64,000 nt of DNA from Brevundimonas abyssalis TAR-001 (lineage in GTDB: Bacteria; Pseudomonadota; Alphaproteobacteria; Caulobacterales; Caulobacteraceae): positions 1 through 64,000 of the forward strand of contig NZ_BATC01000010.1 in assembly GCF_000466985.1 (NCBI RefSeq). Direction: 5' to 3'. The translations under genes and the position numbers were made by a program. Positions 37,050 to 59,939 of this stretch are shown in pieces. The first letter of the stretch is position 1. Every line of letters begins with the position of its first letter. The notes beneath the pieces are model-generated. The model was not told the DNA's origin. It ran no database searches and saw nothing but the letters and a program-made list of their open reading frames with translations.

Positions 37050-37165
37050 CCTCCCACCGTAGCGGGCGGCAGGTCAGGGGTCAGCCCTTGCCGCAGCGGG
37101 TCTCTTCGATTTCGTCGCCGTTCCCTGCCTTGTGCAGGGGGCCCCGACGCGCGGAAACTTGATGG

Positions 37166-38707
37166 TCAAAGTCTTTCTAGGACACCTCGAAGGTCCGCAA
37201 CTGGCGCTTCGACATCCCCAAGAATTATATATTGCCGAGCGTATATATTAAATATCTCGGCTGTTTCTCTATCAATGCGTTTCGATTCTAAGAAGTATTT
37301 ACTGACACGCTCAATGTCGCTCTTGCTTAAATAGCGACCATTTCTCCCTTCTTCATAAATCCAATGAATAATTCCTCTTTGGGCCAAGGCGGTGTATTTT
37401 CCGTCAAAGGCCATTTCAACAGCCCGCTGGTAGTGCGCCGCTCCGGCAGAAGCATCTCCGCTCCGGTATGAGATGCATCCTTTTGTTGCGATAATGCAAA
37501 TCGCGTCTGTATCATCTAGGGAACGGACGGCAGACGCGGAATTTATGTCTTCTACCGCACCGATCAGATCACCTAAGCATGCTCGAGCGTAGGCTCTATT
37601 ATTAAGAAGGACGGGGTCGTGAGCGTTTGCCACAAGACCAGATGTCGCGACACGCTCGGAGACTGTGAAATCCTGCAATATTTCTGCGGCGACAAAAGCG
37701 CCAGTAGCAGCAGCACGCGTGGAAAACGGCTCATCACCTAGCCAAGTCGATGCGTTATCGACAGCATCAACCCACTTTCCTTCCTCCACAGCTTGCCCAG
37801 TACGGGCTTCGAACGTAAGCGCGTTTTCAAGAAGGTTTTTGTTGAAGGGAACGCCACAGGTTTCGTGGGCCCAGCGAACTTGAGCGATAGTATTATCGGT
37901 TGGACTTTCGCACCCTATCTTGAAGAGTTTCTTTGCAAGTTTATCTGACCCGTTCTCCATCTCAAGTGTGGCTAAAGCAGCGGCTAGTTCCGTAACCTGG
38001 GCCGGCCTCCCTCTATCGATAATTTCTCTGAGCTTACGGCTGCTCTCTATAGGCTTCGCAGTCAAATCAGCGATTGCGACTCGTGAGGCAAGGAGCCAAG
38101 TATCCTCTGAAGGCGCATTTTTCAAAATTGACCAAGCTCGATCAACATCTTGATCCAGGACATAAAATCTCACCGCGGATCGAAGTACGTATCGATTGGA
38201 AGGAGCGATCGCTAAGGCAATGCGAAACGAATGCCGTGCTTTATCTATTTGCCCTAAAGATACGTAAGCTCTTGCGAGCTCGACATGTAAAACCGCATTG
38301 CGGGGATATAGCGAAAGCTCCCCCTTCATCTCGGCAATCTGTCTGTATTTTATCTCTCGCGTAATCAAAACTCCATGAGGAGCCGCAGGAGTAAATCCGT
38401 CGTCAAAATATGAGAGAATTAGTTGCTTCGTGCCAGGAGATAAATCGGCAATATGTGCCTTTAGAAATTCAGCGGCCGCATCAGTTTCGGAAGATCTACC
38501 GTCTACGATGGCCATCGATATCATATCAGATGCCGACCATATTGTCGGATCAGTCGCCCACTCTTCAGAAGTTATTATATTGGAACCATGAGGCGACCGC
38601 TTTAATGATCTCCCCTTAGAGCTCACAAGTTCTTGTTTGGGCGTCAGACGAAGAGATCTCCAACGTGGGATCATCTTCCTGCCTATTTTGTTAGATGGAA
38701 GCTGCAT
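37166..38707 (-). CDS. TPR-repeat protein paired with a kinase (low GC)
   Basis: 513 residues rich in helices with TPR-like units, clearest at LYPRNAVLHVELARAYVSLG (about 135-155), DKARHSFRIALAIAPSN and YQRAVEMAFDGKY (about 435). No membrane segment. GC content is far lower than in the surroundings and codons such as ATA and AGA are common, a sign of transfer. The ATG at 38707 overlaps the end of the upstream kinase by 17 bases; an ATG at 38674 is an alternative. Likely a scaffold or substrate of the kinase. Function unknown. Confidence 0.8.
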   Translation of the reverse strand: MQLPSNKIGRKMIPRWRSLRLTPKQELVSSKGRSLKRSPHGSNIITSEEWATDPTIWSASDMISMAIVDGRSSETDAAAEFLKAHIADLSPGTKQLILSYFDDGFTPAAPHGVLITREIKYRQIAEMKGELSLYPRNAVLHVELARAYVSLGQIDKARHSFRIALAIAPSNRYVLRSAVRFYVLDQDVDRAWSILKNAPSEDTWLLASRVAIADLTAKPIESSRKLREIIDRGRPAQVTELAAALATLEMENGSDKLAKKLFKIGCESPTDNTIAQVRWAHETCGVPFNKNLLENALTFEARTGQAVEEGKWVDAVDNASTWLGDEPFSTRAAATGAFVAAEILQDFTVSERVATSGLVANAHDPVLLNNRAYARACLGDLIGAVEDINSASAVRSLDDTDAICIIATKGCISYRSGDASAGAAHYQRAVEMAFDGKYTALAQRGIIHWIYEEGRNGRYLSKSDIERVSKYFLESKRIDRETAEIFNIYARQYIILGDVEAPVADLRGVLERL

Positions 38708-39806
38708 CTATTTTCATTCGGATTTCCGAAACCTTTACAAATCTATCAAATGCAGAGATAAATCTCGTCATCTCGTAGGGGTTCCCATGCTTCCGCCGGC
38801 GACTTGCGGGGTGACCCCTGAGCTGCGGATCGGGTTCCGAAAGATACGTCGCCAACTCAAAAATCTCTGCGGCCAGTTTGGGGTCATGGTTGGTCAGTGA
38901 CGCTTCGATACTGTCTTTCAACTGGCCTAGTGCATCAGCAAGTGCAGCGCGGAAATAGGGCAGGACGTCCTCATATGTTCCTTCCCAACCGCCCCCATTC
39001 TCCGAAAGCGACTGAGGTTTATGTTCTGGCCGCATGAACGAAATGACGGTGGGTGTCAGCATCGCGCCCGTGAAGAAATAATATAGCATGCTGCCAAAAA
39101 GATATAATTCTGACGCGGCCCTGCATCGTGCCTGATCTGGCATTAGAAAGTGATACAAAAACTCCGGGGAAGCATAGTAAGGTTGTCCGGCCAAAGCCAT
39201 CATTTCATGAGGAGATGCGATTGTTCGACAATGAGATCTTCCGAGATCGGCAAGTTTTGAAGTTGCTCCCCCAGAAAACGTTAAGACATTGGACGGCTTC
39301 AGGTCTTGATGAAATATACCTTGGGCGTGAAGCTGATTTAATCCCGTAGCGATTTGATGCAATGCGTTTAAAGACCAGTACGCATCGATTTCATTTTTGA
39401 GGACGGCGTGCTTTCTTACGTCGCCATCCGCAAGCTCAAATATGAGATAGCTCACTGTGCCAAATGGAGCGTCTGGAACCGCAATGGAACCATCAGCAAT
39501 TGCTACAACAACGCGGTCTAGATTTGCGCCCCGGCAAAGTGCAAGGACGTCTCTTTCAAAGTTATATGTGCGTGTCATATCTTCCAGCGCACGCACTTGA
39601 TCTTCAGCTTCTTGGGCTCTGCTGAAATCAAGTGCTTTTAGGAAGCCCACGCGAGAGGGGTTTTCTTCATGCTGAACCAAGTAGCCAACCGAGAAGCAGC
39701 CCCCTGTCTGGTATGCCTGCTTCTTAACTAGTTCTCCGATCACCCAGCCATCACTGGTGCGGAGCCCTGACAACTGTTCTATGGGCTTGGCCAAAGTGAA
39801 CCTCAT
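38691..39806 (-). CDS. Serine/threonine protein kinase (low GC)
   Basis: 371 residues with a eukaryotic-type kinase fold. Features are the Gly-rich loop GGCFSVGYLV, the Lys in VGFLKALD, the catalytic loop HQDLKPSNVL (Asp, Lys and Asn present), DLG in place of DFG (KLADLGRS), and the APE-like YYASPEF. The C-terminal about 90 residues are helical, with no membrane helix or PASTA repeats, unlike housekeeping kinases. It overlaps the TPR gene and shares its low GC. Cytosolic kinase plus TPR pairs are a known style of phage-defence module, but nothing here proves that role. Confidence 0.85.
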   Translation of the reverse strand: MRFTLAKPIEQLSGLRTSDGWVIGELVKKQAYQTGGCFSVGYLVQHEENPSRVGFLKALDFSRAQEAEDQVRALEDMTRTYNFERDVLALCRGANLDRVVVAIADGSIAVPDAPFGTVSYLIFELADGDVRKHAVLKNEIDAYWSLNALHQIATGLNQLHAQGIFHQDLKPSNVLTFSGGATSKLADLGRSHCRTIASPHEMMALAGQPYYASPEFLYHFLMPDQARCRAASELYLFGSMLYYFFTGAMLTPTVISFMRPEHKPQSLSENGGGWEGTYEDVLPYFRAALADALGQLKDSIEASLTNHDPKLAAEIFELATYLSEPDPQLRGHPASRRRKHGNPYEMTRFISAFDRFVKVSEIRMKIDAASI

Positions 39807-39904
39807 TTAGCTTAGCCTTACACCTTACACCTGTTTGTGGACCCGTCTACGAGATGAGGCCTTAGTGGCACGGTGGTCTCCGTCCACCGCCGCCATTGAA
39901 CCCC

Positions 39905-42244
39905 CTACAACCGCCCTTTCCTGAACGCCTCCGCCGACGCCGCTCTCGCCGCCGCGCGGTCCCGCTTCGGCGCCTCCTTGTCCACGGCCTCGCCCGCCCC
40001 CGTCAGGGCCTCGTTGGCGAATTCCAGGTCCATGAGCTTCATGTGCTTGATCTCGTCGCGCAGCCTGGCGGCCTGTTCGAACTCCAGGTTGGCGGCGGCC
40101 TCGCGCATGCGGGATTCCAGGTCCTTGAGGGCGGCCTGGAAATTGGTGCCGACGAAGGGTTTTGAGTCCTCCTTGACGCCGGGGGCGGTGAGCCGGTCCA
40201 GGGCGCGGGACTCATAGGGGCTCTCGATGATGTCCTTAATGTTGGACTTGACGCTTTCGGGCGTGATGCCGTGTTCGGCGTTCCAGGCCTGCTGCTTCTC
40301 GCGGCGGCGGTCGGTCTCGGCCATGGCCCGCTCCATGGAGCCGGTGATGCGGTCGGCGTAGAGGATGACGCGGCCGTCCACGTTGCGGGCGGCGCGGCCG
40401 ATGGTCTGGATCAGGGAGGTTTCCGAGCGCAGGAAGCCTTCCTTGTCGGCGTCGAGGATGGCGACCAGGCCGCACTCCGGAATGTCGAGGCCCTCGCGCA
40501 GCAGGTTGATGCCCACCAGCACGTCGAACGAGCCAAGCCGCAGGTCGCGCAGGATCTCGATGCGCTCGATGGTGTCCACGTCGCTGTGCATGTAGCGCAC
40601 GCGCACGCCCTGTTCGTGCATGTATTCGGTCAGGTCCTCGGCCATCTTCTTGGTCAGGACGGTGACGAGGGAGCGGTAGCCGGCGCGGGCCACGTCCTTC
40701 ACCTCGGCGATGACGTCGTCCACCTGGGAGAAGCCGTCCTTGGACACCGGGCGCACGTCCACCGGCGGGTCGATCAGGCCGGTGGGGCGGATGACCTGTT
40801 CGGTGAAGACGCCGCCGGTGCGGTCCAGCTCCCACGGGCCGGGGGTGGCGGAGACGTGGACGGTCTGGGGCCGCATGGCGTCCCATTCCTCGAACTTGAG
40901 CGGGCGGTTGTCGATGCAGGAGGGCAGGCGGAAACCGTATTCGGCCAGGGTCGCCTTGCGCCGGTAGTCGCCCCGGAACATGGCGTTGATCTGGCCGATG
41001 GTGACGTGGCTCTCGTCCACGAACAGCAGGGCGTTGTCGGGGATGTATTCGAAGAAGGTGGGCGGGGGCTCGCCGGGACTGCGGCCGGTCAGCCAGCGGG
41101 AGTAGTTCTCGATGCCGGCGCAGGAGCCGGTGGCCTCCATCATCTCCAGGTCGAAGCGGGTGCGCTGTTCGAGGCGCTGGGCCTCGAGCAGCTTGCCGTT
41201 CTCGACCATCCAGTCGAGGGTCTCCTTCAGCTCGGCCTTGATGCCGGTGATAGCCTGGTTGAGCGTGGGGCGCGGGGTCACATAGTGGCTGGCCGCATAG
41301 ACGGTGACCTCCTCGAGGTCGGCGGTCTTCTTGCCGGTGAGGGGGTCGAACTCGGCGATGGACTCGATCTCGTCGCCGAACAGGCTGACGCGCCAGGCGC
41401 GGTCCTCCTGGTGGACCGGGAAGATCTCGATGGTGTCGCCGCGCTTGCGGAACATGCCCCGGTCGAAGGCGGCGTCGTTGCGCTTGTACTGCAGCGCGAT
41501 CAGGTCGGCCCGCAGCTTGGACTCGTCGATGGTCTGGCCCACCTTCAGGTCGAAGGTCATGGCCGTATAGGTCTCCACCGACCCGATGCCGTAGATGCAG
41601 CTCACCGACGCCACCACGATCACATCGTCCCGCTCCAGAATCGACCGCGTCGCCGAGTGCCGCATCCTGTCGATCTGCTCGTTTATACTTGAGTCCTTCT
41701 CAATATAGGTGTCTGTTCTCGGAACATATGCTTCTGGTTGATAATAATCATAATACGATACAAAGTATTCGACGGCATTATCAGGAAAGAAGCTTCTGAA
41801 CTCTGAGTATAGCTGGGCGGCGAGGGTCTTGTTGGGGGCGAGGATCAGGGCGGGGCGCTGGGTCGCCTCGATGACCTTGGCCATGGTGAAGGTCTTGCCC
41901 GAGCCGGTGACGCCCAGCAGCACCTGATCGCGCTCGCCGGATTCGGCGGTGGCCACCAATTCGGCGATGGCGGCGGGCTGGTCGCCCGCGGGCTCGAACT
42001 GCGAGGCCAGACGAAACGGGGTCTTCAGGCGCGCGGCGGGGCGGGAGGGGCGGTGCGGGGTCCAGTCGGCGTCGACGCTCGGGGCCTCCTCGGGCGTCAG
42101 GCGCGGGCCGGTGATCGGCGCAAACATGGGGTCCTTGCCCCGCGTCCTCGGCGCGTCGTGCACGAAGGTCCCCGACATGTCGGACACGCCCGGGGTGTGG
42201 ACGGGCTTTGCGGATTTCGAAGGGGAACGGGCCATGAACGCCAA
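39905..42244 (-). CDS. uvrB: Excinuclease ABC subunit B
   Basis: The damage-verifying helicase of nucleotide excision repair. Of 779 residues, the first about 85 are an unconserved extension. Then come Walker [13 protein letters not shown], the beta-hairpin [12 protein letters not shown], the Walker B-like DESHVT, helicase motifs ([18 protein letters not shown]) and a C-terminal UVR motif ([24 protein letters not shown]). A shorter start at MSGTF or MFAPI is possible. The 130 bp over the beta-hairpin have alien codon use (see findings). It is flanked by the kinase-TPR pair and an extensin gene. Confidence 0.97.
41681..41812 (-). other. AT-rich recoded patch within uvrB
   Basis: Over about 132 bp the codon choice switches to CTA, TCA, AGA, GTA, CCA, GCA, ATA and TAT, codons nearly absent from the rest of the gene, while the encoded protein remains perfect UvrB consensus (beta-hairpin region). 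Both edges are sharp. Confidence 0.75.
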
Positions 42245-43046: not shown

Positions 43047-43743
43047 TCCGCCCCGAAGCGGAGCGCCCGGGGGCGGGGGCAGGTCTCAAGCGTCGGCGGA
43101 TGGGGTTGGCCCCCTCCACCACTTCGTGGTCCCCCTCCCCCGACGGGGGAGGAAAAACAGGGTCCGAATAGTGCGAATTGTCCGAAACCGGTGAGACTCC
43201 CGGCGCGAAAAACAGTGCAACGGGAGTCTCATGTTTCGGCTCAAGGGACTGATTTCGCGGGGCGTCCGATGCGAGCGTGAGACTCCGGATGCGAAAAACA
43301 GTGCAACGGCGTGCAACGACGCCTTGTCATCCCGGAAGCGCCGCAGGCGCTGTCCGGGACGGAGCGCCGCCCTCTTGCCCGGGCCCGGACGGGATCCGGG
43401 CCGAGGGTCGCCGGCGCCGGTCGCCCGGCCCAGCCTCGCGGCTGTCAGGGCGGAGCGTCGAGACGGTCGCCGGTCCCGGCGCTCCGCTGCGCGTCGGTCG
43501 GGATGACAAGGGCCGTGAGACTCCGACCGCGAAAAACAGTGCAATGGGCGTGCAACGGCCCCTCTCCCACCGGGAGAAGGAAATCAGTCCGATGAAGTCT
43601 CGTCTCATGCGCCTCCTGTGCGGCCGGGGATGACCGGACAGGATAAGGGCGCGCCGGAGGGGTGGGTGGAAAAAGCCGGGAGAAATCGGCGGGGCCTTGC
43701 GGGGCAAGGGATTTGGCGTGGGAGATGGGGGGATTGGGGGAGT
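43047..43743. repeat. Gene-free 700 bp with three copies of a GTGAGACTCC/GCGAAAAACAGTGCAA unit
   Basis: No credible gene. The unit GTGAGACTCC-N4-GCGAAAAACAGTGCAA occurs at 43191-43220, 43277-43306 and about 43515-43544. In the first copy GAGACTCCCG (43193-43202) pairs with CGGGAGTCTC (43221-43230), putting the A-rich core in an 18-base loop. Between copies 2 and 3 lies a GC-rich repeat. A C/G palindrome is at 43115-43155 and a CTCTCCC/GGGAGAAG one at 43560-43580. Confidence 0.75.
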
Positions 43744-44613
43744 CTAGAACTCGGCGAAGGCGGCCTCGTTCACGGTGACTTCCTCGACCATGCGGACGGT
43801 CACGCCCAGGCCCCGGTCCTTGAGCAGGTCGCACAGGGCGTCCCCGTCCACCAGATCGATGGCGGGGGCGCCGTCGCGGGTGGCCTCGCGCCGGGCGTCG
43901 GCGGTGAAGGTGCCGGTGGTGATGATGAGGCCCTTGTCGGTGCGGCCGACCATGGCGCCCCGGAAGTCGCGCACTGCGCCCGCGCCCACCGAGCCGGAGT
44001 AGCGCTTGCACTGGAACAGGACATGGAAGGACAGCAGGTTCACCCGCAGCACCCCGGTGCCGTCGATGCCGCCGTCGCCCGACTTGCCGGTCACCTCGAC
44101 CTTGATGAAGCCGTACTCGCGCAGAAGGCGCTGGCTGAGCCGTTCGAAGGCGGAGGGGTCCAGCTTGAGCAGGACCGCCATCAACTGGTCCTTCCAGTCG
44201 CCTTCGGTGTCGGCGTCATCCTCGAGAACAGCGACGTCAGGCGTTGAGCCGACTTCGCGGGCCTTGGCGCGAACCCGCGCCATGTACTCCTGCTGGTAGG
44301 CCTTCGGGATCCCGGCCACATCTTCGGGCGTCATGGCAGCCCCGGCGGGGGTGAGCGTCCACACGCCCCGCGCGCTGTTTTCGACCGCGCCGCCGTTCTT
44401 CAGATAGCTGCGGGCGAAGCCCAGCCGCTGTTCCACCGCCAGTTCGTTCCACTTCCCATGACGCACCGCGCGGACGTCTTCCGGCAGACCCATGTAGGTC
44501 GAGATATCGTCCGCCATTTCCTGATTGGTCATCGACCGACCGTGCGCCTTCAGGCGTTCAATGATCGGCCACATGAAGGCTTCGAAGCTGGGAACGTCGT
44601 TGATCGTGGCCAT
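43744..44613 (-). CDS. Mrr-type restriction endonuclease
   Basis: 289 residues. The N-terminal Mrr_N winged helix is at about 8-110 (FMWPIIERLKAHG; GVWTLTPAGAAM), and the C-terminal Mrr catalytic domain has RLLREYGFIKVEVTGKSGDG followed by GIDG and FQCKRYSG. This is the PD-(D/E/Q)xK variant (Asp then Gln-Cys-Lys) used by Mrr, which cuts DNA carrying foreign methylation. It starts directly at the stop of the gene before (TAG|ATG), third in an operon with a restriction-modification enzyme. Confidence 0.9.
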   Translation of the reverse strand: MATINDVPSFEAFMWPIIERLKAHGRSMTNQEMADDISTYMGLPEDVRAVRHGKWNELAVEQRLGFARSYLKNGGAVENSARGVWTLTPAGAAMTPEDVAGIPKAYQQEYMARVRAKAREVGSTPDVAVLEDDADTEGDWKDQLMAVLLKLDPSAFERLSQRLLREYGFIKVEVTGKSGDGGIDGTGVLRVNLLSFHVLFQCKRYSGSVGAGAVRDFRGAMVGRTDKGLIITTGTFTADARREATRDGAPAIDLVDGDALCDLLKDRGLGVTVRMVEEVTVNEAAFAEF

Positions 44614-45042
44614 CTAGTATTCGTCCTCCGGCAGCCGCCAGTTTTTCAGAAACCCGGGAAACCGCTTTTCCGACGCGATCAGATCCTCGCCCGAAGCCGG
44701 TCGTAGGCGGCCATCCGGCTCTTCGATGTAAACACGTCCCTCGAAAGACGAGACGTCCCCACCCGCGCACCTTGCGCGTTCGATCAGCACCGTGGTGGGA
44801 GAGTTTGCGAGGGTGGTGGACAGGTTTTCGATCGCCAGCCGGAGCAGTGGATGATCGGGCTGAATTCGGAGCGCCTGTCGTAGGGCCCCCAAGAGGGCGC
44901 CGGGGTCGCCATCCTGCTCGGCCATGCTGATTGCGAACGCGCCAGCTGGGGAGAGCGGTTCCGCCTGGAGTTGATCGATTATCTCTTCAACGATCGCGTT
45001 TTCTGCTTCCGTTAGCGTGGTTTGATTGTCACCGCCGCTCAC
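44614..45042 (-). CDS. Unknown protein between the R-M enzyme and Mrr
   Basis: 142 residues from GTG 45042, which overlaps the stop of the R-M gene by one base. Acidic and helical at the N-terminus (AENAIVEEIIDQL), with a TPR-like QALRIQPDHPLLRLAIENL. The C-terminal part (VSSFEGRVYIEEPDGRLRPA) looks beta-rich. Its locked position between two nucleases suggests an accessory or regulatory role in the same defence unit. No family recognised. Confidence 0.75.
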   Translation of the reverse strand: MSGGDNQTTLTEAENAIVEEIIDQLQAEPLSPAGAFAISMAEQDGDPGALLGALRQALRIQPDHPLLRLAIENLSTTLANSPTTVLIERARCAGGDVSSFEGRVYIEEPDGRLRPASGEDLIASEKRFPGFLKNWRLPEDEY

Positions 45043-47863
45043 TAGGCCTTCCTCCGCCGCTTCGCCTTGCCCGGCGCCGCCAAGAGGCCCGCGGTCATTT
45101 TCTCATAGAGGGTGAACAGGTGCTCGACGCGCTCGCGGTCGCTGTCGAAGGGCGCCTTGCGGTAAAGGCGGTCCACGGCCTGATCCAGCGCTCGGTGCGC
45201 GCGGCGCAGATCGGCGGGCATGACGTCGGGATCGTAGAGGTCGGCAAGGGTTGCCCCCGGGTGGGCGGCGCGGGCGTTCAGCACCGCCTGGGCAAGTCCG
45301 TCGAGGTAGGCTTTGTCGGCCTCGGTCAGGGTGGGCCAAGGGAATGGGTTGTAGACGAGGCCGATCGAATAGCGGTAGTCGCTCTTCAGCCGCCCCCCGA
45401 TGTGGCGCAGCCACGACATGTGCGTGGCGCTGGTGAGAACTCCGAACTCAGCCAATGAGGCACCCGGCATGAATAGGCAGCTATCATGCGCGATTTCCCC
45501 ATCCCGATAAAACCCGAAGGGGACGTATCGACGGCGCTCTGAGGAGTGGCGAGGGATAAGGATAAACGCTCCGGCGCCTTGCCTGATTTCACCAAAGAGA
45601 GACGGTGTTTCCGCCAAGCGCTGTGTCGCCGGGCGAGAGCTTGCGGAGCGATAGGCACGCACGGCGGCCAGCCTATCCTTCAGGAGGGAGTTTGCACGCA
45701 TCAACCCTAGGGGAGCACCCTGAAGCCAAAGGCAAAAGCGCGCCTCACCGTTGAGGGAGTCTTGGGCTCCCACCAGTTGGCGGACGTACGGACCGATGGC
45801 GGGATCAGCTTGGATCGCATTGGCGGCTTCGGCTTCCGACAAGATCAAATGCCCACCGTCGTTCGGCATATTGCCGAACAGCATCAGCGGTCGGCTCGAG
45901 AGAGCCGTAGTGGTTTCCCTCACTACCAGATGGCGATCTGCCAGTTGTGAAGCGTCAAACAAGTACGGCGACAGCGCCGAATGCCGGGTTTCATCCGGAT
46001 CGCCGTTGATGTCCTCGTAGTTGAAGAGGCGCTTCTCCGCCGGTTCGTGGTCCCGCCGCGTCAGTCCTATGATCACGACATGAACATGGGCCTTGCCGCG
46101 TGCGTCTGAGCCCCAGCCGAAGGTTCGATGCGCGAAGGCGATTTCCAAGCCGTAACGTTGGAACAGCAGCGGCCACAGCTGTGCGACCTGCTCTCCTTGG
46201 GTGATGGAGTTGGTCGAGACGAAGCCGATGCGGGCCGGTCGCGACCCCTCTACGGTTTCGCCGGCCCCGTCCCCAGTGCGTGGGGAGGAGACGTATTCGC
46301 CAGCCTTAATGAACCACGCAGCGACGAAATCGAGGGTGCCACCGGACTTGCCGAGCGCGGCAATGCGTCGGACCTGCGCCCTCTGGGTCTCGCTCTGCAC
46401 CTTGGCGCCCAGAAACGGCGGATTGCCGAACACATAGCTGCACTGCTCCGGCGGCAGCACGTCGGCCCAGTCGGTTTCCAGCGCGTCGCCATGAACGATG
46501 TGTGGCGCGGCCTTGAGCGGGATGCGGGCGAAGACCTGGCCGAACTCGAGGCTCAGCCGGTTGTTCATGATGTGGTCCATCATCCACATGGCCGTTTCGG
46601 CGATGCGGGCGGGGAACTCGTCGATCTCGATGCCGTAGAATTGGTCGACATCGACCTTGGACAGGGCGGCGGCCTCCAGCTCGCGCTGGCCCGTGGGGTA
46701 GAGGGCCTGCAGCAACTCGATCTCGAGCAAGCGCAGTTCGCGGTAGGCGATGATCAGGAAGTTGCCGCAGCCGCAGGCCGGGTCGAACAGGTTGAGGCCG
46801 GCGAGCTTGTCCTGAAAGGCGCGCAGGGCCGCGTCACGTCCTCGCTTCAGCCCCTTGATGCGGGACAGTTCGGCGCGCAGGTCGTCGAGGAACAGGGGCT
46901 CGATGACCTTCAGGATGTTCTTTTCGGTGGTGTAGTGGGCGCCTTGGCGCGGCGCTCCTTGGCGTTCATCACCGACTGGAACAGAGCGCCGAAGATGGCC
47001 GGGCTGATCTTCTCCCAGAAGAAGCCGCACGCCTCCAGGAGCCGCTCGCGCATGGCGGTGTTGAAGTTGGCGATCGGCAGGGTTTCGGCGAACAGGTCGC
47101 CGTTGATGTAGGGGAATTTGGCCAGATCCTCGTCCAGCCCGTCGCGCCAGGCGGCGTCCTCGGGCGTGTTCAGGGTCTGGAAGATCAGGTTCAGCTTGGC
47201 GCCGAGGTCGTGGCCGTCGGTGGCTGTGCGGTCGCGCAGATAGGTTTCCAGCATGCCCCGTTCGGGGAAGATGCCGGTGTCGTCGGCGAACAGGCAGAAC
47301 AGCAGCCGCACCAGCAGCCGTTCCAGCGGGGCACCGTCATAGGTGGGTTTCAGCGCATCATGCAGCTTGCCCATGATTTCGGCGGCGATGATGTTGACCG
47401 GGTCCTGGTCGTTGAAGACCCGCTTCTCGACCCCGACCACGAAGCCGAACGCCTCTACATGGGCGGGCAGGTCGGCGAGGGGGAAGTGCGTCTCCTCGCG
47501 CGTGTCCAGATCGATCAGCTCGAACGACTGGAAGTCGCACAGCAGGACGTAGCGCGGGAGTTCGTGGTCCTTGAGGCCGGGGAAGTAGTCGAGCGCCTGT
47601 TGGCGGGCGCGGGTCAGGTTGCGGCCTGCGCTCTTCTGTTCGACCAGCAGGACGCCCTTCCAGAACAGGTCGATGAAGCCGCGCTTCTCGCCCAGAAGGC
47701 GCACGGGCTCTTCGAAGGCGGCGACCTTGCGGCGGCGCACCCCGAACGCCTCGAAAAACTCATTGTAGAAGGTCTGGGTGTCGCCCTTCTCGTAGTGGGC
47801 GTCGGCCCATTCGCGAGCGAACTCTGCGGCCCGCACCCTGATCTCGTTCCAGCTTAGGCGCAT
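45042..47863 (-). CDS. Type IIG/IIL restriction-modification enzyme (apparent frameshift near 46940)
   Basis: A single-chain nuclease and N6-adenine-type methyltransferase, about 940 residues after correction (MmeI is 919). The N-terminal PD-(D/E)xK nuclease has RGFIDLFWKGVLLVEQKSAG. A helical connector follows, then methyltransferase motif I FDPACGCGNFL, GIEIDEFPARIAE, catalytic NPPFLGAK and a C-terminal target-recognition region (LVYNPFPWPTLT). The frame breaks after NAKERRAK; reading AAGGCGCCC as AAGGGCGCCC gives GAHYTTEKNIL, the expected motif X. ATG 47863 is chosen over a TTG at 47911. First gene of the operon with the unknown protein and Mrr. Confidence 0.9.
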
Positions 47864-47904
47864 CCGTACCCCCCGCGCCGGACATTCGCCCGCTTCGCGC
47901 CAGC

Positions 47905-48005
47905 GTTGCAAGCGGGGAGTGGGGGAGGCCCCTCATCCCCCGCGCAAGAACCTCCGCTGCGCTCCGGTGCGCGGGGCCCCCTTCTCCCGACGGGAGAAGG
48001 GGCAT
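47905..48005. repeat. Dispersed intergenic repeat
   Basis: CCCCGCGC, CGCTGCGCTCCGGTGCGCGG and CCTTCTCCC-GAC-GGGAGAAGG, closely similar to 36735-36800. Lies between the R-M operon and the PadR gene; no gene seen in 47864-48149. Confidence 0.65.
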
Positions 48006-58615: not shown

Positions 58616-58987
58616 ATGAACGGAACGGGGGCGACGGGCATGGTCTTGATGGCGCTGGCGCTGGCGGCGTGTTCGGGCGCGGGCGAGACCCGGACGCGGG
58701 CCGTGCCGTCGGGCGATCCCGAGCGGGGGCTTCGGATCATGAACGAGGTCGGCTGCGGATCGTGTCACGCCATTCCGGGGATCGACTGGCCGCAGGGTCG
58801 GGTGGGTCCGCCGCTGTCGGGGATGGGCGGCCGGGCGCTGATCGGATCGGGCCTGCCGAACCGACCCGAGACCCTGATCCCCTATCTGATGAACGCGCCC
58901 GTCGCGGACCCCGGGTCGGCCATGCCGCCCATGCCAATCAGCGAGGAGGAGGCCCGTGACATCGCCGCCTATCTCTATGAGCACTGA
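58616..58987 (+). CDS. Monohaem cytochrome c lipoprotein
   Basis: 123 residues. The signal has the lipobox ALAAC. The haem site is CGSCH at about residue 47, with a distal Met in SAMPPMPISEEEARDI. It precedes and overlaps the subunit II start, so it is likely a dedicated electron donor for the caa3-type oxidase. It is divergent from the dihaem cytochrome gene across 81 bp. Confidence 0.88.
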   Translation: MNGTGATGMVLMALALAACSGAGETRTRAVPSGDPERGLRIMNEVGCGSCHAIPGIDWPQGRVGPPLSGMGGRALIGSGLPNRPETLIPYLMNAPVADPGSAMPPMPISEEEARDIAAYLYEH

Positions 58988-59939
58988 GGCCTTCGCGGGA
59001 TGGCCGCCGCCGGCCCTGACCTCGGCGGGGCCGTTCGCCGCGCCGCTGGTGACCCTGTCGTGGGGCGTGTTCGCCATGGCGGCGGTGGTGCTGCTGATCG
59101 TGATCGCGGCGCTGGTGCTGGCCCTGTTCGGGCGTGAGGACCTGAAGGCGAAGATTGGTAATCAACGGTTGATCTGGTACGCCGGGCTGGCCTTTCCGGT
59201 GGTGGTTCTGAGCGCCTTGCTGATCTGGGGCCTGTCCCTGACCTCGGCCCTGACCGGAGAGCCCGAGCCGGGCGAGATGCGGGTGCGCGTCACCGGCGAG
59301 ATGTGGTGGTGGCGTGTGGCCTATCTTAACCCCGAGGGCGGGGAGGCGGGCGCGGTCCAGTCGGCCAACGAGGTGCGCATCCCGGTGGGCGAGCCGGTGA
59401 CCTTCGAACTGGAGTCCGCCGACGTGATCCACAGCTTCTGGGTCCCCCGTCTGGGCCCCAAGCTGGACATGATCCCGGGTCGGACGAATATCCTTAGACT
59501 TCAAGCCGATGAAGCTGGAACTTACGGCGGACAATGCGCTGAATATTGCGGCGGGCCGCATGCCCTGATGGGGCTGGTGGTGGTGGCCATGCCGCGCGAC
59601 GAGTTCGACGCCTGGATGGCGGAGCAGGGCGAGGCGGCGGCGGCGCCGACCGATGCGCTGGCGGCTCAGGGACTGGAGGTGTTCCAGGACAACGGCTGCG
59701 GCGCCTGTCACGTGGTGCGCGGGGCGCCGGGCGCCTCGGGACTGGCGGGGCCGGACCTGACCCATGTGGGCAGCCGGCGGACCATCGGGGCCGGAATCCT
59801 GCCCAATAATCGCGGCACGCTGGCGGGGTGGATCGCGGACAGCCAGGGCATCAAGCCGGGCAACCGCATGCCGTCCTACACCACCCTGTCGGGCGACGAG
59901 CTGCAGGCGGTGGCGGCCTATCTGGACGGGCTGGAATGA
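58977..59939 (+). CDS. coxB: Cytochrome c oxidase subunit II with C-terminal cytochrome c domain
   Basis: 320 residues from ATG 58977 (GTG 58956 is an upstream option). Two membrane helices (about 25-50 and 65-90), the CuA domain with ligands in ADVIHSFWVP and CAEYCGGPHALM, then a fused cytochrome c (CGACH, Met in RMPSYTTLS). The cytochrome fusion defines the caa3 type. It overlaps the catalytic subunit start by four bases. The 67 bp over the CuA motif show unusual AT-rich codon choice. Confidence 0.95.
   Translation: MSTEAFAGWPPPALTSAGPFAAPLVTLSWGVFAMAAVVLLIVIAALVLALFGREDLKAKIGNQRLIWYAGLAFPVVVLSALLIWGLSLTSALTGEPEPGEMRVRVTGEMWWWRVAYLNPEGGEAGAVQSANEVRIPVGEPVTFELESADVIHSFWVPRLGPKLDMIPGRTNILRLQADEAGTYGGQCAEYCGGPHALMGLVVVAMPRDEFDAWMAEQGEAAAAPTDALAAQGLEVFQDNGCGACHVVRGAPGASGLAGPDLTHVGSRRTIGAGILPNNRGTLAGWIADSQGIKPGNRMPSYTTLSGDELQAVAAYLDGLE
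59485..59551 (+). other. AT-rich recoded patch within coxB
   Basis: Codons ATC CTT AGA CTT CAA, then GAA GCT GGA ACT, then GGA CAA and GCT GAA TAT replace the usual GC-ending ones across the stretch that leads into the CuA ligands; the protein sequence stays canonical. Confidence 0.6.

What the first reader, a model, noticed from the sequence alone, without database searches (positions are those of the whole stretch)
41681..41812. uvrB contains a 130-bp patch of alien codons over its beta-hairpin
The protein is consensus UvrB, but codons such as CTA, AGA, GTA, ATA and TCA replace the usual GC-rich ones with sharp edges on both sides. A synonymous swap confined to the most conserved motif looks like gene conversion from a distant donor, a scar of a lost intein or homing element, or recoding that blocks an endonuclease target.
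Basis: partly seen in the sequence, partly recalled or inferred. Interest (0 to 1): 0.62.

Follow-up and report, generated by a model that had tools for sequence, protein, structure and literature searches.

The report
Recurrently recoded spot in uvrB
In one genus of bacteria, more than half of the species examined spell one short stretch of the DNA-repair gene uvrB with unusual synonymous codons, overlapping the same codon each time while the protein hardly changes, which hints that something acts on the DNA itself at that spot.

Summary
The patch is real: 28 of 44 codons (145-188) end in A/T, against 5.3% elsewhere in this uvrB, with sharp edges. It is not unique to this genome. Segmentation of 103 uvrB sequences of the genus (Brevundimonas by inference) finds 60 with exactly one A/T-codon patch. 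All 60 cover codon 171, none lies elsewhere, and 0 of 60 uvrB genes of two sister genera has one (four of five settings agree on the region). Patches are 10-65 codons long (median 22). At least 18 state changes fall on the gene tree. Near sisters can differ in 17 of 30 core codons while distant species share alleles. No donor, phage, plasmid or viral source or guide was found, and 0 of 131 genomes of the genus hold an intein. Fifteen single-contig genomes carry the patch, so assembly error is not the general cause. Best reading: a discrete, recombining class of synonymous haplotypes kept by selection on DNA around codons 171-177, most likely escape from a sequence-specific DNA attack. The attacker is inferred, not seen. 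A second, lineage-specific patch lies in coxB of the same window.

The parts
39905..42244 (-). uvrB, excinuclease subunit B (779 aa in the ORF list)
   Evidence: ORF list; solved UvrB structures at E down to 1e-242
41681..41812 (-). A/T-codon patch, codons 145-188
   Evidence: segmentation gives codons 145-187
41714..41734 (-). focal site, codons 171-177 (E A Y V P R T): codon 171 is covered by all 60 segmented patches of the genus
58977..59936 (+). coxB, cytochrome c oxidase subunit II (COX2 plus cytochrome c domain)
   Evidence: Pfam
59478..59561 (+). second A/T-codon patch, over the CuA motif QADEAGTYGGQCAEYCGGPH (motif name recalled); also in the nearest relative G051; 2 of 45 aligned coxB genes carry a segmented patch
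37166..39806 (-). A/T-rich gene pair next to uvrB: TPR protein and protein kinase, best PADLOC hits PDC-M71B and PDC-M71A (candidate defence pair)
43744..44613 (-). Mrr-like type IV restriction endonuclease on the other side of uvrB

Best explanation
SHOWN: the genus carries a discrete class of synonymous uvrB haplotypes that differ from the usual GC-rich spelling around one focal point (codons 171-177 of this gene), with tracts of 10-65 codons, several allele families, repeated gain or loss, and near-identical core spelling in distant species. INFERRED: selection acts on the DNA or RNA sequence and not on the protein. The usual spelling is likely the target of a sequence-specific attack, for instance a site-specific or guided endonuclease or an integrating element that reads some 20-35 bp of this conserved motif. 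Recoded alleles escape, and breaks or selection at this site spread them by short-tract gene conversion. The attacker would be limited to this genus and has not been seen.
For: Single focus: 60 of 60 segmented patches cover codon 171; none elsewhere in 65,684 codons. Under four of five settings every patch lies in codons 130-215 (51-64 of 54-65 cover codon 171); shuffled genes give 0-2 patches. Genus-specific: 0 of 60 uvrB of two sister genera; the A/T core pattern in 16 of 249 family genomes, all in this genus; in the class sample 7 of 385, of which 2 are this genus and 5 lie in DNA of GC 0.28-0.45. Two regimes: pairs of unpatched genes differ in the core about as much as outside (ratio 0.87-1.14), both-patched pairs 2.1-2.9 times more, mixed near pairs 6 times more (23 pairs). 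Replacement: sisters G060/G004 differ in 17 of 30 core codons but 5.8% outside, G028/G015 in 16 of 30 at 6.4%; G060/G096 differ in 3 of 30 at 20% outside, G059/G099 in 3 of 30 at 17%. At least 18 state changes against a shuffled mean of 30. The 24- and 30-base windows most changed from every unpatched sequence start at codons 169-175 (patched was defined there by A/T count in codons 157-190).
Against: No attacker was found: no inteins, no uvrB neighbour family clearly tied to the patch, no guide-like match that I judge above chance in 40 genomes (with 20 candidates scored per genome and the list cut), no viral contig with either core pattern. One or two mismatches would usually suffice for escape, so a median of 22 codons is more than needed. 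Patched alleles share a gained string (AAGCTT in 45 of 73 patched against 1 of 47 unpatched), which also fits a gained function. Sister genera show a weak A/T rise at the same place: in one genus the top 20-codon window of the gene is codon 171 (0.093 against a mean of 0.046), in the other 0.08 against 0.036; with 10-codon windows other places are higher. coxB genes without a patch also have their highest A/T share over the CuA motif (0.21). Both hint at a mild general effect at conserved motifs. The core of allele A could be old shared ancestry instead of transfer. The coxB patch has no known link to the same agent.
Confidence: 0.37

Rival explanations
1. Neutral mosaic: an old imported or diverged uvrB segment segregates in the genus and is shuffled by ordinary homologous recombination, without an attacker.
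For: Alleles are near-identical across distant species; for 12 long patches tested the nearest sequence lies in the genus; one MAG holds both spellings.
Against: Ordinary recombination should leave patches elsewhere in the gene, and none is found in 103 sequences with the main setting (7 short ones with the laxest of five). Sister genera have no patch. A neutral polymorphism of some 66 bp would hardly last through a genus that differs on average at 19% of synonymous codons (my inference).
Confidence: 0.25
2. The A/T-rich spelling is a gained nucleotide-level function, such as a protein-binding site, an internal promoter or an RNA element.
For: Shared gained strings: AAGCTT in 45 of 73 and CTTATG in 43 of 73 patched against 1 and 0 of 47 unpatched; GANTC sites in 52 of 73 against 15 of 47. 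Weak A/T rise at the same place in two sister genera.
Against: The rest of the patch differs between allele families; about 40% of species lack it; the genes found beside uvrB vary. RNA folding and promoters were not tested.
Confidence: 0.19
3. Local loss of codon selection or of GC-biased conversion lets this stretch drift to A/T.
For: Patched pairs diverge about 2-3 times faster in the core; patch size correlates weakly with A/T elsewhere in the gene (rho 0.29); weak A/T rise at the site in sister genera and at the CuA motif of unpatched coxB.
Against: Unpatched relatives show no raised rate (ratio about 1.0); sisters with 6% divergence outside differ in 16-17 of 30 core codons; the edges in this genome are sharp; sister genera have no patch.
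Confidence: 0.11
4. Scar of a lost intein or self-splicing intron with co-converted flanks.
For: The site is the kind of conserved motif such elements choose (start of the abstract of PMC2814812, seen in the listing).
Against: 0 of 131 genomes of the genus hold an intein; no uvrB with an insert at the site was seen. Introns were not searched for as families.
Confidence: 0.05
5. Assembly artefact of a metagenome bin.
For: The window comes from a 128-contig genome of 86% completeness; several MAG and viral contigs end in this motif.
Against: 15 genomes listed as single contigs carry a segmented patch (contig counts; patches).
Confidence: 0.02

Closest known systems
Mosaic genes made by short-tract recombination (penA-type mosaics, recalled)
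   Same: Short tracts with sharp edges inside a core gene, shared between species
   Different: Here the changes are nearly all synonymous, have one focal codon, were found in one genus only, and no donor species was found
Synonymous recoding of a homing-endonuclease or gene-drive target (natural phage cases and synthetic cleave-and-rescue designs, recalled)
   Same: Conserved protein motif, recoded DNA, unchanged product
   Different: No endonuclease, element or rescue copy was found; the tract is longer than a target needs
Phage or element attachment inside a conserved gene with a recoded gene end, such as icd in E. coli (recalled)
   Same: Recoded host-gene sequence next to a recombination point
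   Different: The patch is internal, both gene ends are host-like, and no integrated element was seen at the site
Trans-species polymorphism under balancing selection
   Same: Alleles shared between species, peak of silent divergence around one site
   Different: The cases in the listing are protein-level immune loci of animals and plants; here the protein barely varies

Membership tests
Intein or intron homing site | An inserted element at the site in some relative | tested here: not met
   None seen among the matched genomes; 9 of 131 genomes lack a match to the 82-aa fragment, several of them with uvrB cut by a contig end; G005 has runs of N
Intein or intron homing site | Inteins present in the host group | tested here: not met
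   0 of 131 genomes; 6 of 14 control genomes ring
Phage attachment site | Viral sequence carrying the short target without a whole uvrB | tested here: not met
   0 viral contigs with the usual or the recoded core pattern, exact matches only; a neighbouring motif matches 7 contigs that I did not read further
Phage attachment site | Integrated element bordering the site | tested here: not met
   uvrB reads through the site in the 98 genomes; flanking genes vary
Mosaic gene by recombination | History of the tract disagrees with the rest of the gene | tested here: met
   Sisters with different tracts, distant species with like tracts, at least 18 state changes; no formal recombination test was run
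Mosaic gene by recombination | Identifiable donor outside the group | tested here: not met
   Best outside identity 75-84% for 12 patches against 117 outside sequences at hand; lower each time than within the genus
Recoded nuclease target | Single focal recognition site common to all patches | tested here: met
   60 of 60 cover codon 171; 51 of 54 to 64 of 65 under three other settings
Recoded nuclease target | A nuclease or guide that cuts the usual spelling | tested here: inconclusive
   No guide-like match judged above chance in 40 genomes, capped search; protein nucleases cannot be tested by sequence
Recoded nuclease target | Usual allele is cut or counter-selected | not testable with these tools
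   needs a bench test

The most novel reading that the evidence does not exclude
A mobile or defence-linked DNA-targeting agent limited to this genus reads about 20-35 bp of the usual uvrB spelling at codons 171-177. It has driven repeated, genus-wide synonymous recoding of that one site, a natural counterpart of recoded rescue alleles in gene-drive designs, and in this lineage perhaps of a second site in coxB.
Probability: 0.21. Interest if true: 0.85.

Novelty: new variant of a known kind. Interest (0 to 1): 0.64.

Why it matters
Silent-site polymorphism is usually treated as near-neutral. Here a genus shows recoding at one codon-sized focus of a universal repair gene while two sister genera show no patch. 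If DNA-level attack is the cause, the patch is a fossil record of an unknown targeting system and gives the sequence that it reads. If a gained function is the cause, a hidden nucleotide-level site lies inside one of the most conserved motifs of bacteria. Either answer can be tested at the bench.

Tried and rejected
Donor searches: an exact 29-base pattern in the 84,980-species collection found 17 stretches, from A/T-rich or unrelated taxa judged by record titles; viral contigs gave one contig, which I judge to be of a Gracilibacteria-like bacterium. Phage and plasmid collections gave ordinary uvrB genes or short matches that I judge to be chance, in the rows listed (rows beyond the caps not seen). 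Viral contigs that end inside the uvrB motif (3 of 26) looked like attachment sites at first; on reading their frames I took them for contigs of other bacteria that end in a conserved motif. A further motif matched 7 viral contigs, left unread. An apparent interruption of coxB in one relative was a run of N in the record and was dropped.

Neighbour genes (about 1.5 kb or less on each side, crude frames, some spurious): the three largest flank families hold 8 of 23, 15 of 20 and 7 of 14 patched genomes against 61 of 98 overall. Some small families are all patched (6 of 6) or all unpatched (0 of 5), which may only follow the tree; not tested.

Guide search: 39 of the 40 genomes have a segmented patch, G079 only by count. 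Besides uvrB and a uvrB paralog in G079, the best match was E 9e-4 in G056, outside the core; the best in the core was 27 bases at 89% in G010, E 0.006.

Foreign amino acids: patched genes carry 0.44 non-consensus residues in codons 155-190 against 0.21 in unpatched ones, mostly R176K and T177S; too weak to mark a donor. Ten-codon haplotype counts at codons 171-180 are high (62 of 103) but several windows are higher, among them those starting at codons 61, 71, 91, 101, 151, 271, 681 and 691; the signal lies in A/T spelling and pairwise silent divergence.

Papers: eight searches and one passage of PMC7466150 gave nothing on recoding of uvrB. I saw listings and starts of abstracts only, apart from that passage.

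Changed on checking: single-contig genomes with a patch are 15, not 17; the weak A/T rise in sister genera and in unpatched coxB was added, for which I lowered the best explanation from 0.40 to 0.37 and the novel case from 0.22 to 0.21, and raised the gained-function and drift rivals by 0.02 and 0.01.

Full report
What is in the window. uvrB runs on the - strand from 42244 to 39905 and matches solved UvrB proteins over most of its length (residues 73-736 of 779 in the best hit). Codons 145-188 (41812-41681) change from GC-ending to A/T-ending spelling: 28 of 44 against 5.3% in the rest, 0 of 30 on the left and 2 of 30 on the right. The patch covers [21 protein letters not shown]; that this is the beta-hairpin is recalled knowledge of UvrB structures, not a tool result.

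Is it rare within a genome? I scanned for 20-codon stretches of low GC3 between GC3-rich flanks in the same open frame. In the window plus 400 kb of four other genomes of the genus, 50,707 positions were eligible, and only two patches reached 0.25 or less: uvrB and coxB, both in the window (three weaker ones at 0.45-0.50). Another 400 kb and 399 kb of G000 gave two and two weaker ones, at 0.35-0.50; I take some for wrong frames. The 400 kb from the four relatives were chosen beside uvrB and elsewhere, so that their own uvrB patches were largely left out of that scan.

Is it present in relatives? Yes, and this changes the picture. Of 98 uvrB genes of the genus, about two thirds show A/T codons at the same place in different spellings and lengths, and about a third show few or none. 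With 17 further sequences, counts over codons 157-190 are bimodal: 47 sequences with 1-7 A/T-ending codons and 73 with 9-23 (120 sequences; six fragments from G041, G005, G100, G039, G085 and G322 were left out). A two-state segmentation over codons 75-735 of 103 sequences (102 genomes; one MAG gives two) finds 60 patches in 60 sequences. All overlap codons 171-181 and all cover codon 171; median length is 22 codons, range 10-65, and none lies elsewhere. Of five settings, four give patches only in codons 130-215, 51 to 64 of which cover codon 171; the laxest adds 7 short ones elsewhere; shuffled genes give 0-2. Fifteen of the patched genomes are listed as single contigs, so assembly error is not the general cause.

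Is it special to the genus? Two sister genera, 30 genes each, give no patch; the 30 loci of each were the best matches among 45 and 46 genomes searched. Their silent divergence at codons 161-190 is 0.20-0.24 against a gene mean of 0.23 in one, and 0.19-0.24 against 0.17 in the other. Their A/T share at codons 171-190 is 0.09 and 0.08 against means of 0.05 and 0.04, a weak rise at the same place that counts against a wholly genus-bound cause; with 10-codon windows other places are higher. An A/T core pattern is found in 16 of 249 genomes of the family, all in this genus, and in 7 of 385 genomes of the class; the five outside the genus lie in DNA of GC 0.28-0.45.

How does it evolve? Mean silent codon difference over pairs is 0.19 outside and 0.44 in codons 161-190; the core exceeds the outside in 91% of 4,950 pairs. 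The excess belongs to patched genes: unpatched pairs have a core/outside ratio of 0.87-1.14, both-patched pairs 2.1-2.9, and 23 mixed pairs with under 0.10 outside 6.0. On a tree built without the region, patched and unpatched states need at least 18 changes among 99 tips (shuffled mean 30.5, minimum 22), so there is both inheritance and turnover. Sisters can hold different alleles: G060/G004 17 of 30 core codons at 5.8% outside, G028/G015 16 of 30 at 6.4%. Distant species can hold nearly the same: G060/G096 3 of 30 at 20%, G059/G099 3 of 30 at 17%. Twelve long patches are nearest to others of the genus and 75-84% identical at best to 117 outside sequences at hand. One MAG has one contig with the usual and one with the recoded spelling, which may be two strains. 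G000 and its nearest relative G051 share related patches in both uvrB and coxB, so both look inherited there.

What marks the site? The 24- and 30-base windows in which patched genes differ most from every unpatched gene start at codons 169-175. A/T endings are commonest at codons 171, 172, 173 and 176 (0.85-0.95 of patched, 0.02-0.30 of unpatched); patched is defined there by A/T count in codons 157-190, so this is partly circular, while the segmentation is not. Patched genes also share gained strings such as AAGCTT (45 of 73 against 1 of 47). These facts cannot separate loss of a target from gain of a site.

What could do it? No intein domain occurs in 131 genomes of the genus, with a working control. 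No neighbour gene family clearly goes with the patch. Short matches to the usual spelling elsewhere in 40 genomes stay at what I judge chance level, the best in the core being 27 bases at 89%, E 0.006 (capped). Viral contigs hold neither core pattern exactly. In G000 uvrB sits between a candidate defence pair (PDC-M71), an Mrr nuclease and a MmeI-like enzyme in two overlapping frames; I did not look for these in the other genomes.

Judgement. The best mechanism is escape from a sequence-specific DNA attack with short-tract conversion, at 0.37. Neutral mosaic exchange (0.25), a gained nucleotide function (0.19) and local drift (0.11) remain open. The coxB patch over the CuA motif (2 of 45 coxB genes segmented) is a second case in one lineage and may or may not share the cause; coxB genes without it also have their highest A/T share there (0.21).

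Noticed in passing
window 59478-59561 (+), coxB: Second A/T-codon patch over the CuA motif, shared with the nearest relative G051; no segmented patch in the other 43 coxB genes aligned.
   Followed up: partly
window 37141-39841: A/T-rich (GC about 0.47) two-gene island next to the uvrB end, TPR protein and kinase matching the candidate defence pair PDC-M71.
   Followed up: partly
window 45042-47911 (-): MmeI-like type IIG restriction-methylation enzyme lies in two overlapping reading frames, so it looks interrupted.
   Followed up: no
window about 43190-43545: Three copies of a similar string of the form gtgagactcc...gcgaaaaacagtgcaa between genes, seen by eye; a possible small repeat family.
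   Followed up: no
L384 and L141 (G041 contigs C161 and C173): One MAG holds the usual and a recoded uvrB spelling on two contigs that overlap in the patch.
   Followed up: partly
L128 (G079:C1:1401020-1402765): A second, diverged UvrB (50% identity) in a single-contig genome of the genus.
   Followed up: no
loci: uvrB seems to have no fixed gene neighbours in this genus: with short flanks and crude frames, the largest flank family is found in 23 of 98 genomes.
   Followed up: no
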